A stretch of 64,000 nt of DNA. Origin: Streptomyces rimosus. GTDB taxonomy: Bacteria > Actinomycetota > Actinomycetes > Streptomycetales > Streptomycetaceae. Below are positions 32,007 through 39,461 of the stretch, piece after piece; within the stretch, counting starts at the first letter, position 1; every line of letters begins with the position of its first letter. Both the position numbers and the translations under genes were made by a program. The notes beneath the pieces were generated by a model, which was not told the origin of the DNA, made no database searches, and worked only from the letters and a program-made list of their open reading frames with translations. Location of the stretch: positions 1,798,001 through 1,862,000 of the forward strand of contig NZ_CP023688.1 in assembly GCF_008704655.1 (NCBI RefSeq), read 5' to 3'.

Positions 32007-34634
32007 TCAGGACGGGTCGCCGTACTGGAGGCCGCGTCCGTTGGTGCCGATGTAGACGCGGCCGAAGGTGTCGGGGTCACCGGTGATGACGCCGACGCCA
32101 CTGATGTTGCCCCACTGGTGGTCGTCGTCGTTGACGCGGAGCCAGGTGGCGCCCTTGTCGGTGGAGCGGAAGACCCCGCTGACGTCGTTGACGGTGCCGA
32201 TCATGTACAGGGCCTGGTAGGAGGCGCCCGGTGCGGCCTTGCCGAAGCCGAGGGCGGCGGCGGACTTCACCGTGGTGAGCCTGGCGAAGGTGCGGCCGCC
32301 GTCGGTGGAGTGCAGCAGCCCCCGGTCACCGCCGGCGATCCACAGGTCTCCCGCAACGCCGGGTACGGCCTTGAGCCGGCCGCCGGCGGGAAGGCCGGTG
32401 GCCCGGGCCGTGAAGGTCGCTCCGCCGTCGGTGCTGGCGTAGAGCGTGCCGCCGGCCAGCGAGTAGAACGTGCCGGCCGAGGAGCGGTCGGCGACGACCA
32501 CGGCGCCGGCGCCCAGGCCACCGACCTTCGACCAGCTCGCCCCCTTGTCGGTCGAGCGGTACGGGACCTGGCCGGCCTCGGTCCACACGATGCTCGCACC
32601 GTCCGCCGCGAGCGCGACCTGGCCGCTGTCGGCGCCGACCACCGGCTCCGACCGGAAGCCGGTCCAGCTGTTGCCGCCGTCGGTGGAGTAGGCGCCGTCC
32701 TGCGCGCCGCCACTGCCGACACGGACCATCACCGAGGGGTTTGCCTCGGCGAAGTCGATGTCGGTGCTGTTGCTCATCAACGGGTTGTTCATCCGCCCGG
32801 CGGGCACCTTGGTCAGGTCGTCGTGGCGGAAGCCGCCCTGGTCGCCCATGGCGGTGATGACGGTCGCACCGCCGGGCGGGGCGATCGCGTCCATCAGCGC
32901 GGTCTCCTCCAGGCCGCGCGCGCCCACGGTCCAGTGGCTGGTGCCGCCGCTGTCGGTGGCGTCGGCGTCCTTGCTGCGCCAGATGCCGTTGCCGGTGCCG
33001 TACAGCACGTGCCCGGAGTCGAAGGGGTCCATGGCCAGGGCGGTCATCCAGTGCCCGGTGTGGGTGCCGATGTACGGAGCGGCGGAGGCGTTCCGTACCG
33101 ATTTCCCGGCCAGCGCCTTCCATGTCGTGCCGCCGTCGGTGCTGCGGTAGATCTCGTCCTCGGGCCACCAGCGGTCGAGGGTGGTGACCATCACCGTGGA
33201 CGGCTTGCGCGGGTCGACGGCCAGGCCGGAGAAGCCGTAGCCGCCCTGGGACGGGGAAACGTTCTTCCACGCTCCGCCTGCCGGGGTGTACTTCCACACC
33301 GAGCCCGCCGTCACGCCGTTGGGTCCGAGGTTGTCGGTGTACGTCAGGTACAGCGAACCGTCACCGGAGACCACGCCATGCTGGGGCAGTTGGCCGGTGG
33401 GCTGCCCGGGGACGGCCTTCCAGGTGCTGCCGCCGTCGGTGGAGCGGTAGAGGGAGGTCGACTTGTCCGCGACGCCGACGTAGACCGTGTTGCTGCCGGC
33501 CGGCCCGTACGTCACGAAGGAGATGCCCGCGCCACTGCCCGCCCCGTCCTTGACCGGGAACGTCGAGACCTGCCGCCATGTCACCCCGTGGTCGGTGCTG
33601 CGCCACAGGCCGTTCTTACGGGTCCCCAGCAGCAGGGTGCGGTGGTCCGAGGGGTCGATCGCGAGCCGTTCGCCCGCCCCGCGGCCGTCCTCGTTGCCGC
33701 CCAGCTTGAACGGCAGATCGGTGCGCTGGAAGGTGCGGCCCCGGTCGGTGGAGCGCAGGATCGCGCCGTTGCCGGCCCAGTTGTTGGTGTAGGTGCCCGT
33801 CGCGAGGTAGAGCCGGCTGGGGTCGACGGGGTCGGTGGCCAGCGCGTCGATGCCCAGCAGGTTCCAGTCCTTCTCCCCGAGCCAGTCCGTGAGCGGTATC
33901 CACTGCTCGGCCGCGGTGTCCCACCGGTAGGCACCGCCCATGTCGGTGCGCGCGTACAGCAGACCCTTCTCCCGTGGGTTGAACACCAGGCCGGTGACGT
34001 AACCGCCGCCGACCACCTGGGCGTTCCTCCACTTGTACGGCCCGGCCGCGGCCGCCTGGCTGCCGGTCACCTTCACCAGCTTCCACTGCTGGTTGATGCT
34101 GCCCCTGCCGGGATACTGGACGACCGCCGCGCCCTGGGCCGTGGCCCCTCCGGAGACGTCCAGGACCTGGCCGCTCTTGCGGGAGGTGAAGGTGACGGCG
34201 CCGGAGCCGCTCACGTCATCGATCCGCCACTCCTGGGAGGCGGCGGAGCTGTCGGTCTGCTGCTCGGCGGCAGCCGACCGGGCGGTCGAGCCGCCCGCTA
34301 TGCCGAGCACCTTGCCGCTGTTGCGGTTCACGAGCTCGTAGTGGCCGTCCTCGGTGGGCCTCAGCTTCCACTGCTGGTTGGCGGTGTTCTGGTCGGTCCA
34401 CTGCTGGATGCGGGTGCCGTCGGCGGTGGAGAAGGCGTTGACGTCCAGCACCTTGCCGCTGCGCACGGAGACAAGCTTGTAGTAGGCACCGGCGTCGATC
34501 GTGGCGGCCAGGGAGTCCTCTTGGGTGAACAGGAGGTACGGCACGACGGCGGCCGGCACGCCGAGCAGCAGGCCGGTCGCGGCTCTGCGACGGCGGTGAC
34601 GCCCGCGGCGCCGTCCGTCCGTGTGGTTCTTCAT
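32007..34634 (-). CDS. Secreted CBM13-GH74 xyloglucanase
   Basis: Extracellular enzyme of 875 aa that cleaves xyloglucan. The arginine-rich signal peptide (RRRRAATGLLLG) may use the Tat route. Residues about 45-195 form a ricin-type lectin (CBM13) with repeated QQW/QEW motifs. The rest is a two-propeller GH74 domain with many BNR-type repeats (STDGGSTW, STDRGRTF), LLYARTDMGGAYRWD, LATGTYTNNW and MDPFDSGHVLYGTG, all hallmarks of the family. The N-terminal position of the lectin is notable. I chose ATG 34634, 11 nt after AAGGAG, over ATG 34655, which lacks a ribosome binding site. It starts 41 bp after the xylanase gene, so one operon. Confidence 0.92.
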   Translation of the reverse strand: MKNHTDGRRRGRHRRRRAATGLLLGVPAAVVPYLLFTQEDSLAATIDAGAYYKLVSVRSGKVLDVNAFSTADGTRIQQWTDQNTANQQWKLRPTEDGHYELVNRNSGKVLGIAGGSTARSAAAEQQTDSSAASQEWRIDDVSGSGAVTFTSRKSGQVLDVSGGATAQGAAVVQYPGRGSINQQWKLVKVTGSQAAAAGPYKWRNAQVVGGGYVTGLVFNPREKGLLYARTDMGGAYRWDTAAEQWIPLTDWLGEKDWNLLGIDALATDPVDPSRLYLATGTYTNNWAGNGAILRSTDRGRTFQRTDLPFKLGGNEDGRGAGERLAIDPSDHRTLLLGTRKNGLWRSTDHGVTWRQVSTFPVKDGAGSGAGISFVTYGPAGSNTVYVGVADKSTSLYRSTDGGSTWKAVPGQPTGQLPQHGVVSGDGSLYLTYTDNLGPNGVTAGSVWKYTPAGGAWKNVSPSQGGYGFSGLAVDPRKPSTVMVTTLDRWWPEDEIYRSTDGGTTWKALAGKSVRNASAAPYIGTHTGHWMTALAMDPFDSGHVLYGTGNGIWRSKDADATDSGGTSHWTVGARGLEETALMDAIAPPGGATVITAMGDQGGFRHDDLTKVPAGRMNNPLMSNSTDIDFAEANPSVMVRVGSGGAQDGAYSTDGGNSWTGFRSEPVVGADSGQVALAADGASIVWTEAGQVPYRSTDKGASWSKVGGLGAGAVVVADRSSAGTFYSLAGGTLYASTDGGATFTARATGLPAGGRLKAVPGVAGDLWIAGGDRGLLHSTDGGRTFARLTTVKSAAALGFGKAAPGASYQALYMIGTVNDVSGVFRSTDKGATWLRVNDDDHQWGNISGVGVITGDPDTFGRVYIGTNGRGLQYGDPS

Positions 34635-34675
34635 GGGGAGGTGTTCTCCTTGCATATCACCGTGGATCGGGCAGG

Positions 34676-37540
<2,865 letters not shown>

Positions 37541-39106
37541 TCAGGCCCGGGCCTCGCGCGTGATGAAGGAAGCCTGGCCGGCGAAGGCCCGAGTGCCGTC
37601 GGAGCCATCGAGCCAGATGCCACCGTCGCGGTGGCGGAGGACCGATCCGGGATAGTTGTGCGCGTGCAGGGTCACCGACCCGGCGACCGCCCCGGGGCGC
37701 GGACAGAAGGTGGCGTCTTCACGGAACAGTTGGCTGCCGTCGTTGGTGCTCAGCCGTAGCCGCAGGTACTGATGGCGAAGATACCGGCCGTCCGCGGCGC
37801 GGAGGGTGACGCACCGTGTGTCGGCCAGTCCCCCGACGACCGTGAAGGTGATCCGTTGCGGTGCCTGCGCGCCGCCGGGCGCGGAGACTCGGCCGCCGAG
37901 CGTCGCGAAGTCGCCGGCGTACGTGACGAACAGGCCGGGCTGGTCCACGGACTCCAGCGACCGCGCGCCCAGCGGAACCGTTCCCGCGACGGCGGACGGA
38001 CTCGCCGGGGACGGTTTGGGCGACGCGGTGGTGCGCGACGGGGTCGGCGTGGGGGCGCGCGACGGGAGCGGCGTGGGGGTGCCGACCTCGGGCGCGGCGA
38101 TGACGGCGGGCGTCCGGGGCGCCGGTTCGGGCCAGGCCGCGTAGGTGGCGGCCCCGGCGACGAGCACCGCGCCGGTGGCGAGGCTCACCACCGGATGAGC
38201 GGTCACCACGTGCAGTTTGCCGAGCAGCGAGCCGTGCAGACTGCTTCCCCCCGTCGCCGTGCCGACGCTGACGTGTGCCGCGGCCAGCCCGGCGGCGCCC
38301 GCGGCAGCCGTACCCGACAGCAGGCCCTTGGCGGCCAGCGCGGCGAGGAGTGCGGCCGGGACGGCCAGCGGCGCGATGTTGAGAAGCAGCAGTTCGGCCG
38401 GAACCCGTTCTGTCGTCGTGCAGACCGGGCAGTCACGGGTGTGCCGCGCGATCCGCTTGCGCCACACCGATGTACGGAGACCGTCCCAGCCGGCGACGGT
38501 CTCGTTCAGCTGCGGACAGCGCGGGTCCGCCTCCAGCGCGGCGACAATCGTCCGGCTCAGTTCCAGTTGCTCGCGCATGCGCTGCAAACGAACTCCGGCG
38601 TGGGCGGCGCTGAGCCCCATCGCGTCGGCGATGTCCTGACGGCTCAGCAAACCGGCGCATTCCTGCCACCACAGCGACAGCAGCACCCGGTGGTCCGGGT
38701 CGAGCCACCGGGCGGCTTCGACCACCTGACGGCGCTCGTCCGACATGTGCAGCCGCAGGATCGTCATGTCTTCGGGCGCGGTGCCGACATGCGGTGTCCG
38801 GAGTGCCTCGTCGATGACCGTGGTCCGGTCGGCGAGAGTGCGTTGCCGGTGCCAGTGGGTATTGACCTGGCGGAGCGCGATCGACACCAGCCAGGACCGG
38901 AAACTTTCCGGGGCCCGCAGGTCGGGCAGGTCGCGCACCACGCGCAGCAGGGTCTCCTGGACGACGTCGTCCACGTCGGCATGTCCGCTCAGCGCCCGCC
39001 CGACGATGTTGTAGAGCAACGGCAGGTACGCGGCGATCAGCTTCTCGCGCGCCCGGTCGTCACCGGCCTGCGCCGCGACAACCAGCTCCACATGGCCCGC
39101 GTCCAT
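37541..39106 (-). CDS. ECF sigma factor fused to zinc anti-sigma-like segment, TM and AbfB (CBM42) sensor
   Basis: Protein of 521 aa that joins signal reception and transcription. Residues 10-95 are sigma region 2 (VDDVVQETLLRVVRDLPDLR), about 120-185 region 4 (LSRQDIADAMGLSAAHAGVR). His222-x3-Cys226-x2-Cys229 (RHTRDCPVC), with Cys197 upstream, matches the zinc anti-sigma HxxxCxxC signature. Hydrophobic stretches at about 236-283 and 304-324 are membrane segments; 330-378 is a Pro/Thr/Ser linker; 380-521 is an AbfB arabinose-binding domain (CVTLRAADGRYLRHQYLRLR, NYPGSVLRHRDGGIW). Topology would put the sigma part inside and AbfB outside. It lies directly upstream of the GH10-GH62/GH74 operon on the same strand. 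I infer an arabinoxylan-sensing one-component sigma factor; fused ECFs are known as a class. Confidence 0.9.
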   Translation of the reverse strand: MDAGHVELVVAAQAGDDRAREKLIAAYLPLLYNIVGRALSGHADVDDVVQETLLRVVRDLPDLRAPESFRSWLVSIALRQVNTHWHRQRTLADRTTVIDEALRTPHVGTAPEDMTILRLHMSDERRQVVEAARWLDPDHRVLLSLWWQECAGLLSRQDIADAMGLSAAHAGVRLQRMREQLELSRTIVAALEADPRCPQLNETVAGWDGLRTSVWRKRIARHTRDCPVCTTTERVPAELLLLNIAPLAVPAALLAALAAKGLLSGTAAAGAAGLAAAHVSVGTATGGSSLHGSLLGKLHVVTAHPVVSLATGAVLVAGAATYAAWPEPAPRTPAVIAAPEVGTPTPLPSRAPTPTPSRTTASPKPSPASPSAVAGTVPLGARSLESVDQPGLFVTYAGDFATLGGRVSAPGGAQAPQRITFTVVGGLADTRCVTLRAADGRYLRHQYLRLRLSTNDGSQLFREDATFCPRPGAVAGSVTLHAHNYPGSVLRHRDGGIWLDGSDGTRAFAGQASFITREARA

Positions 39107-39461
39107 GAGCCCATCCCACCTTCGTCAAGGGAGCGATCCGCCGAGTACGGCGGCATACCTTAGCGTCGGCAAACAGTTACGGCCAAAGCCTGCGCCTCGG
39201 GCGGACGAGCCGGCCCGCGGGTGCGTTCGGGTAGCAGGCGGCCTACTCGTGGACGTCAGGTGATGCCCCATCAGGACGAGCGTCGAATGAGCATCGCGAC
39301 CGCCATTTCAGCGTGCGGCTATCGTCCGCACCGCATGCGTCGTTACCGCCTCGCTCGTCCGGGTACCCGGCCGGCCACCGAACGGGCCGCCGACGAAGCC
39401 GCCGCCACCGGCCCCGTGCCCCGGCGCGTAGCAGACCTGACGCGATGCCGAGCCGCCGGCC
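39107..39461. other. 355-bp spacer upstream of the fused sigma factor
   Basis: No coding sequence recognised. It carries the promoter of the sigma gene (ribosome binding site GGTGGGA before ATG 39106) and follows the LuxR stop on the same strand. On the minus strand CCGTAAC about 75 bp before the start is the nearest thing to an ECF -35 box, without a clear partner. Confidence 0.4.
39138..39153. promoter_or_regulatory. CCGCCG/CGGCGG dyad in the sigma-gene leader
   Basis: Perfect 6-bp inverted repeat CCGCCG-agta-CGGCGG, 32-47 bp upstream of the sigma factor start. It could be a leader hairpin or an operator; G+C-rich palindromes arise easily here, so weight is low. Confidence 0.3.

What the first reader, a model, noticed from the sequence alone, without database searches (positions are those of the whole stretch)
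37541..39106. Membrane-tethered ECF sigma factor with its own zinc anti-sigma-like segment and an extracellular AbfB arabinose-binding domain
Seen: sigma regions 2 and 4, HxxxCxxC (His222, Cys226, Cys229), hydrophobic segments at about 236-283 and 304-324, a Pro/Thr/Ser linker and a C-terminal AbfB/CBM42-like domain in one chain. Known: ECFs with C-terminal regulatory fusions exist and have been called one-component systems; CBM42 binds arabinose side chains of hemicellulose. Inferred: this protein reads arabinoxylan outside the cell and gates its own sigma domain, with the GH10-GH62/GH74 operon right downstream as target. The match between sensor ligand (arabinose) and regulated enzyme (GH62 arabinofuranosidase) makes a specific, testable circuit.
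Basis: partly seen in the sequence, partly recalled or inferred. Interest (0 to 1): 0.85.

Follow-up and report, generated by a model that had tools for sequence, protein, structure and literature searches.

The report
Sigma factor wired to hemicellulase operon
A soil bacterium's gene-switch protein carries its own arabinose-binding-type domain, probably displayed outside the cell, and it appears to control one promoter, that of the neighbouring genes for enzymes that digest arabinose-decorated plant fibre.

Summary
Window 37541-39106 (minus) encodes one chain: ECF sigma domain, an invariant Cys-His-Cys-Cys zinc-type segment, hydrophobic segments, a Pro/Ser/Thr linker and a C-terminal AbfB/CBM42 domain (Pfam 4.5e-36; fold match to the RsgI5 CBM42).

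The architecture is a known kind: actinobacterial ECF52/ECF53-type "one-component" sigma factors, whose carbohydrate sensing a review calls unvalidated.

The new part is the circuit. In 63 of 64 Streptomycetaceae loci a GH10-GH62-type enzyme gene follows downstream; the window's outer neighbours recur in 1 of 64. A two-block element, TTTYNGTTAYG-N16/17-GCCTCC, follows the sigma gene in 65 of 76 loci. It was found once in the 9.36-Mb genome and once in each of 8 of 13 other genomes, always after this sigma gene. Paralogous sigma genes carry a looser form (YGTTAY-N16-18-GYCTC) in front of themselves (15 of 32). That suggests a family promoter, moved in this clade from self-activation to the enzyme operon.

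Ligand binding, topology and release of the sigma domain remain inferred.

The parts
37541..39106 (-). gene of the fused ECF sigma factor (521 aa)
38840..39040 (-). sigma region 2 (residues 23-89)
   Evidence: Pfam PF04542 E 7.2e-14
38531..38776 (-). sigma region 4 (about residues 111-192)
   Evidence: TIGR02937 over 19-182; AlphaFold2 helices, block pLDDT 60 then 85-95
38420..38518 (-). C197-x24-H222-x3-C226-x2-C229 zinc-type (anti-sigma-like) segment
   Evidence: all four invariant in 73 of 73 aligned proteins; zf-HC2 and PDB anti-sigma chains not matched
38318..38404 (-). first hydrophobic segment (residues 235-263), perhaps a sigma-binding or surface helix rather than a membrane helix
   Evidence: hydropathy; broken into short helices in the AlphaFold2 model
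38135..38215 (-). second hydrophobic segment (residues 298-324), proposed single membrane helix
   Evidence: hydropathy; not resolved by AlphaFold2
37970..38131 (-). Pro/Ser/Thr linker (residues 326-379)
   Evidence: sequence
37562..37960 (-). AbfB / CBM42 domain (residues 383-515)
   Evidence: Pfam PF05270; Foldseek TM (target) 0.91 to 9fnk, the RsgI5 CBM42
39157..39186 (-). vegetative-like promoter of the sigma gene, TTGGCC-18-TAAGGT
   Evidence: similar boxes in 27 of 71 loci against 0.6% of shuffles
39138..39153 (-). conserved palindrome CCGCCG-TACT-CGGCGG near the expected transcript start of the sigma gene
37251..37284 (-). predicted sigma-dependent promoter TTTCCGTTACG-N17-GCCTCC of the hemicellulase operon
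   Evidence: looser form upstream of paralogues
37039..37155 (-). conserved 38-codon leader ORF whose TGA overlaps the GH10-GH62 start codon
34676..37042 (-). GH10-CBM13-GH62 enzyme gene, proposed target
   Evidence: Pfam
32007..34655 (-). CBM13 plus BNR/Vps10-type propeller enzyme (GH74-like), 20 nt after the previous gene

Best explanation
This is a membrane-tethered, self-contained sigma factor dedicated to one operon. It is made from a housekeeping-type promoter and held inactive by its own zinc-type segment. Its AbfB/CBM42 domain hangs outside the membrane on a Pro/Ser/Thr linker. Binding of arabinofuranosyl side chains of arabinoxylan or arabinan triggers release of the sigma domain, most likely by regulated proteolysis. 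The sigma domain then drives one promoter, TTTCCGTTACG-N17-GCCTCC, directly downstream of its own gene, which transcribes the GH10-CBM13-GH62 xylanase/arabinofuranosidase and, in 45 of 64 loci, also the GH74-like gene behind it. Shown by sequence and comparative genomics: domain content, conserved adjacency, and the conserved promoter-like element shared in a looser form with the paralogues' upstream regions. Inferred: topology, ligand, inhibition, proteolytic release, co-transcription, and that this sigma reads this promoter.
For: Domains. Invariant C197/H222/C226/C229 in 73 of 73 and invariant AbfB H445 and D464 in 63 of 63, which align with AkAbfB His416 and Asp435 (the residue numbers and their arabinose-binding role are recalled). 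A GH10-GH62-type enzyme follows downstream in 63 of 64 loci, 71-762 nt after the sigma stop, against outer flanks in 1 of 64 at over 60% identity (55 of the 64 hold at least 8 kb on both sides). In 30 genus genomes examined for both, all 6 with the close sigma (76% or more) have the enzyme adjacent; 2 have the enzyme alone, 22 neither (Fisher p 4.7e-5; 9 of the 20 genomes were picked for their enzyme hits). Element in full form in 65 of 76 loci and nowhere else in them; once in the own genome with the TTTC form; once each in 8 of 13 further genomes, each time between this sigma gene and the next gene; in 1 of 23 genomes without the close sigma, in a non-consensus form. Paralogues carry YGTTAY-N16-18-GYCTC upstream of their own gene in 15 of 32, 0 hits in the rest of those loci. 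Arabinose-related enzymes surround the sigma in Catellatospora and Phytomonospora. Two AbfB-bearing genes flank the 45%-identical AbfB sigma of G007, where a near form of the element (ending GTCTCC) points at one of them.
Against: No expression, binding or topology data. Two hydrophobic segments leave the crossing number open: both pass a simple threshold in 36 of 63 AbfB-type proteins, this set itself shows no charge bias around the last segment (0.98 K/R before, 0.87 after), and AlphaFold2 has pLDDT below 50 over 265-374. The alpha and gamma sugar pockets of AbfB look degenerate by inspection (at 511, Q in 57 of 63). In the three Micromonospora loci none of the 6 neighbours scanned with Pfam is an arabinan enzyme, although a diverged element follows the sigma gene. 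Other blocks upstream of the element are conserved too, so a second regulator may act there. The element was first read off the same loci it was then counted in; the whole-genome and paralogue counts are more independent, but related species are not independent samples. By the CCTC-ended pattern the element is absent from G007, three Micromonospora and Actinoplanes. The own-genome paralogue L002 has no upstream element. The reversed-pattern control gave 3 hits in the 13 genomes and 2 in the 23. The zinc segment matched no anti-sigma structure by profile.
Confidence: 0.7

Rival explanations
1. The two-block element is the binding site of a separate transcription factor (for example a LacI-type repressor), and the sigma factor is an unrelated but co-inherited neighbour.
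For: Further blocks just upstream (GCATAACGCTTT, GCGAGATGCATCAC) are conserved as well, and the first contains the inverse of the CGTTAYG block; LacI-family genes lie beside the sigma in Catellatospora and Phytomonospora.
Against: Paralogous sigma genes in other genomes carry a looser form of the element at 16-18 nt spacing in front of themselves (15 of 32). The element is missing from 22 of 23 genomes without the close sigma, including two that keep the GH10-GH62 enzyme.
Confidence: 0.15
2. The sigma factor does control the operon, but the signal is not arabinose: AbfB anchors the chain to the wall or to another glycan, and activation comes from envelope stress or from proteolysis.
For: Paralogues with the same sigma and zinc parts carry CAP, Glyco_hydro_cc, ricin-B, Lcl_C or unnamed domains. 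Only the beta pocket of AbfB looks intact.
Against: The AbfB clade sits beside arabinofuranose-releasing enzymes in Streptomycetaceae and in Catellatospora and Phytomonospora, and the beta-pocket His and Asp are invariant in 63 of 63.
Confidence: 0.2
3. AbfB is cytoplasmic (two membrane crossings or none) and the protein senses an imported arabino-oligosaccharide.
For: Both hydrophobic segments pass a simple threshold in 36 of 63 AbfB-type proteins, the first is the stronger, and the AbfB set shows no charge bias around the last one.
Against: Two invariant cysteines in AbfB (C432, C468; 63 of 63) and a long Pro/Ser/Thr linker fit an exported domain. In 10 other-sensor paralogues the last segment carries positive charge before it (mean 4.1 K/R against 1.1 after), so C-terminus out. 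L079 lacks a strong first segment. The first segment holds prolines and is broken in the model.
Confidence: 0.12

Closest known systems
SCO4117 of Streptomyces coelicolor (ECF52)
   Same: One chain of ECF sigma domain, zinc finger, membrane region, proline-rich stretch and carbohydrate-binding module; proteolytic release proposed (PMC5826349, abstract and passages read).
   Different: SCO4117's module is smart00776 and it controls development and antibiotics. The own genome has a separate ECF52-like protein (L005, zf-HC2 plus NPCBM), 29% identical to this one over residues 7-286. That smart00776 is NPCBM is recalled.
ECF53 (and ECF48) groups
   Same: C-terminal fusion to a zinc-type segment and one to two membrane helices; some ECF52/53 members have predicted glycosidase or carbohydrate-binding domains (PMC8999054 passages; PMC10766802 section 6). 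Probably the group this protein belongs to.
   Different: Membership could not be tested: no ECF-group models or reference sequences were at hand. An AbfB sensor, a single-operon target and this promoter were not seen in the passages read; the classification papers are not held.
Clostridium thermocellum SigI5/RsgI5
   Same: A CBM42 sensor domain on the anti-sigma partner of a sigma factor tied to biomass enzymes (PMC12203970 and PMC4711584 passages); the RsgI5 CBM42 is among the best isolated-domain fold matches (TM 0.91).
   Different: There the sensor is on a separate anti-sigma protein and the sigma is of the SigI type; here sigma and sensor are one chain.
IutY of Pseudomonas putida (ECF243)
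   Same: Sigma and membrane anti-sigma fused in one protein, released by proteolysis (PMC8999054 passage).
   Different: Responds to a siderophore, not a glycan.

Membership tests
ECF sigma factor | sigma-70 regions 2 and 4 only (TIGR02937 above cutoff) | tested here: met
   68.8 bits against cutoff 42.9, residues 19-182
ECF52 | sequence kinship with SCO4117-type proteins, zf-HC2 match, smart00776-type module | tested here: not met
   29% identity to the own genome's ECF52-like L005, which stands in for SCO4117 itself; AbfB instead of NPCBM, and no zf-HC2 match
ECF53 | assignment by the group's own profile or phylogeny | not testable with these tools
   no ECF-group models; classification papers not held
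ECF52/ECF53/ECF48-type fused sigma | zinc-type segment, one or two membrane helices, long extracytoplasmic extension | tested here: inconclusive
   zinc ligands invariant; membrane helix supported by hydropathy only, not by AlphaFold2
AbfB / CBM42 | Pfam PF05270 and beta-trefoil fold | tested here: met
   E 4.5e-36; TM 0.88-0.91 to isolated CBM42 structures
AbfB / CBM42 | binding of arabinofuranosyl side chains | not testable with these tools
   beta-pocket His and Asp invariant in 63 of 63
zinc anti-sigma (ZAS) domain | H/C-x24-25-H-x3-C-x2-C ligands (spacing recalled) | tested here: met
   C197, H222, C226, C229 in 73 of 73
zinc anti-sigma (ZAS) domain | profile match to known anti-sigma domains | tested here: not met
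   no zf-HC2 match; no anti-sigma chain in PDB with profile A2; hhalign to the L005 zf-HC2 region 39.5% probability, E 0.00031
zinc anti-sigma (ZAS) domain | inhibits the sigma domain until released | not testable with these tools

The most novel reading that the evidence does not exclude
A family of fused sigma factors shares one promoter grammar (YGTTAY-N16-18-GYCTC), in many members placed for self-activation. In the AbfB clade the circuit was rewired: the sigma gene went over to a housekeeping-type promoter, and the sigma-dependent promoter now stands only in front of the adjacent arabinoxylan-degrading operon. The result is a one-sensor, one-sigma, one-promoter module contained in two or three neighbouring genes.
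Probability: 0.58. Interest if true: 0.72.

Novelty: new variant of a known kind. Interest (0 to 1): 0.62.

Why it matters
A review (PMC10766802, section 6 read) states that experimental validation of the carbohydrate-related domains of ECF52/53-type fused sigma factors has yet to be performed. This case names a sensor domain with a likely ligand, one promoter and one operon, all within about 7 kb, so the idea can be tested in a single strain with a reporter and a deletion. It would also give a compact, portable arabinose-side-chain sensor for Streptomyces, and it suggests that sensors and targets in this family can be swapped.

Tried and rejected
CebR control: the recalled CebR consensus at up to 3 mismatches gives 8 hits in the window against 8.06 expected, so there is no support for it here.

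Odd start codons: 24 of 72 stacked sequences have a codon other than ATG at the window's Met1. This was rejected as an anomaly, because by eye most homologues have an in-frame ATG three codons upstream and the window's species lacks one G there.

Second copies of the GCCTGCGAGATGCATCAC block: five Streptomyces loci (L029, L038, L040, L074, L076) have a minus-strand copy at a similar place, and in the two I inspected (L029, L040) it falls inside a coding frame. The own genome has 4 other exact hits of the shorter pattern, none with the other blocks beside it. These are taken as chance.

GH74-like gene as a separate target: in the 5 loci where it is divergent, no copy of the element lies before it.

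Anti-sigma homology by profile: not found. AlphaFold2 did not settle topology.

Neighbourhoods of the other-sensor paralogues were listed only by ORF; I did not establish any sensor-neighbour match for them.

Full report
What is there. The ORF at 37541-39106 minus is a single 521-residue chain. Residues 19-182 match the ECF sigma model. Residues 383-515 match AbfB at 4.5e-36, and the predicted fold of that part matches isolated CBM42 structures with TM 0.88-0.91, including the CBM42 of the clostridial anti-sigma RsgI5. Between them lie C197-x24-H222-x3-C226-x2-C229, hydrophobic windows at 235-269 and 298-324 and a Pro/Ser/Thr linker. The four zinc-type ligands are invariant in all 73 rows of A1, which holds 63 AbfB-type proteins and 10 paralogues with other sensors, a selection of those fetched. 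Pfam zf-HC2 does not match this protein, and a profile of the segment (A2, 22 rows) finds no anti-sigma chain in the PDB.

Topology. An even number of crossings would put AbfB inside. The first hydrophobic segment is stronger by hydropathy (median 2.17 against 1.61 in the 63 AbfB-type proteins) but has prolines and is broken in the AlphaFold2 model. In the 10 other-sensor paralogues the last segment is more strongly hydrophobic (median 2.09) and has on average 4.1 Lys/Arg before it and 1.1 after, which fits one crossing with the C-terminus out; the AbfB set itself shows no such bias (0.98 against 0.87). AlphaFold2 leaves 265-374 below pLDDT 50. I take one crossing as the most likely, unproven.

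Relatives. A scan of genome contigs gave 76 distinct loci (106 relatives, best 80 kept). Of these, 64 are Streptomycetaceae AbfB-type sigma loci (L061 is labelled only 'Actinobacteria bacterium'), 7 are Micromonosporaceae sigma loci with an AbfB-like end, 2 are sigma factors with other sensors (L080, L081) and 3 are AbfB matches outside a sigma gene (L082-L084). L073 and L075 have a sigma frame that is broken as deposited.

Neighbourhood. In 63 of the 64 Streptomycetaceae loci an enzyme matching the window's GH10-CBM13-GH62 protein follows on the same strand, its match starting 71-762 nt after the sigma stop (for L073 and L075 measured from the early stop of the broken frame); the exception, L021, has the GH74-like gene there. 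The GH74-like gene is downstream in 45, divergent just upstream in 5, elsewhere in 1 and not seen in the held flank in 13. Each of seven genes further out in the window recurs at over 60% identity in 1 of 64, the nearest relative; 55 of the 64 loci hold at least 8 kb on both sides. In whole genomes of the genus, 30 were examined for both genes: 6 have the close sigma (76% or more), all with the enzyme adjacent (in G043 the match skips the CBM13 part); 2 (G011, G024) have the enzyme without the sigma; 22 have neither, among them G007 with its more distant AbfB sigma (Fisher p 4.7e-5). Nine of the 20 genomes were picked because they had enzyme hits. In Phytomonospora and Catellatospora the AbfB sigma is surrounded by GH127, GH62, GH51-type, GH10, GH43 and fucosidase-family genes, LacI-family proteins and ABC transporter genes (which enzyme is present differs by locus). 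In three Micromonospora loci none of 6 neighbours scanned is an arabinan enzyme. In G007 a 45%-identical AbfB sigma is flanked by two AbfB-bearing genes, one a GH43 fragment.

Promoter. The stretch between the sigma stop and the enzyme start holds conserved blocks. Comparing it with Phytomonospora and Catellatospora reduced the common core to TTTYNGTTAYG-N16/17-GCCTCC. In full form it follows the sigma gene in 65 of 76 loci and the search pattern occurs nowhere else in them. Of the 71 AbfB-type sigma loci, 5 of the 6 without it show a near form (L017, L023, L069, L070, L078) and L079 has none. In the own genome the TTTC form occurs once. In 13 further genomes the TTTY form occurs once in 8, each time between this sigma gene and the next gene, and not in G007, three Micromonospora and Actinoplanes. 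In 23 genomes without the close sigma it occurs once, in a non-consensus form. Reversed-pattern control hits were 3 in the 13 genomes and 2 in the 23. An order-2 Markov simulation of the two narrower patterns gave no hit in 5.8 Mb.

Why it looks like a sigma promoter. Paralogous sigma genes in other genomes have YGTTAY-N16-18-GYCTC on the sense strand within 300 nt upstream in 15 of 32 distinct genes, with 0 hits in the remaining 121 kb (both strands) of those loci; all 65 AbfB-clade elements also fit this looser pattern. In nineteen paralogue loci of up to 20 kb, 10 of 11 hits are at that place and 1 (L149) is elsewhere. The own-genome paralogue L002, not among the 32, has none. The spacing fits ECF promoters, and the second block often reads CGTC, a usual ECF -10 core (recalled). 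None of 71 AbfB-type sigma genes has this element upstream; 27 of 71 have a TTGVMN-N16..19-TANNNT pair there, against 0.6% of shuffles. The paralogues are related to each other, so the counts are not independent events, and two of the cases (L092/L146 and L096/L150) helped to define the pattern.

Modular sensors. The same sigma plus zinc part carries CAP (L002 of the own genome; L103), Glyco_hydro_cc (L099, L115), ricin-B (L117), Lcl_C (L080) or a domain without Pfam match (L104, L105; L111, L112 and L118 look alike by eye). On a tree of the sigma part, AbfB needs at least two changes; holding all AbfB rows together is rejected only weakly (AU p 0.034, long branches present).

Literature seen. 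PMC5826349: abstract and passages. PMC8999054: passages. PMC10766802: section 6 and passages. PMC4711584 and PMC12203970: passages. The searches 'sigma factor' with 'AbfB domain' (no papers), ECF groups, RsgI5/CBM42, sigma with arabinofuranosidase terms, regulatory extensions, arabinoxylan with sigma factor and 'GH62' with sigma factor showed no paper on this circuit in their listings. The papers that define the ECF groups are not held, so a prior prediction of the promoter or of an AbfB member cannot be excluded.

Judgement. The domain fusion is a known kind. The conserved pairing with one operon and the single conserved promoter-like element are the substance of the finding. They turn a general proposal about carbohydrate-sensing sigma factors into a specific test.

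Noticed in passing
window 37039-37155 (minus): A short ORF starting MTRHTHE- ends with a TGA that overlaps the GH10-GH62 start codon. Of 61 sequences in which the ATG was found (window included), 50 show a separate ORF of 12 to about 55 codons ending this way and 11 run in frame into the enzyme. It looks like a translationally coupled leader peptide.
   Followed up: partly
window 37311-37342 (minus): Two further blocks, GCATAACGCTTT and GCCTGCGAGATGCATCAC, are conserved upstream of the predicted promoter in Streptomyces; the first contains the inverse of the CGTTAYG block. Possibly a second regulator's site.
   Followed up: partly
window 39138-39153 (minus): A palindrome CCGCCG-TACT-CGGCGG is conserved just after the vegetative-like -10 box of the sigma gene, perhaps an operator or a 5' hairpin.
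   Followed up: no
L002 / L147 (own genome 183261-184391): A paralogous fused sigma with a CAP-domain sensor sits divergently beside a gene that looks like a D,D-carboxypeptidase (by eye).
   Followed up: no
L104, L105, L111, L112, L118: Fused sigma factors whose C-terminal domain of roughly 170 residues (motif MPTWTGLKGKLFHVASGG..RMDD or close to it) looks shared by eye; L104 and L105 matched no Pfam model there.
   Followed up: no
L099, L115: Fused sigma factors whose C-terminal part is a Glyco_hydro_cc domain that keeps NEPD and TE motifs, so the sensor may itself be an enzyme.
   Followed up: no
L073, L075: In these two Streptomyces records the AbfB sigma frame breaks after the zinc-type segment while the enzyme genes downstream remain; decay or sequencing error.
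   Followed up: no
L005 (own genome 4991683-4992558): A separate ECF52-like fused sigma with zf-HC2 and NPCBM, probably the counterpart of SCO4117.
   Followed up: partly
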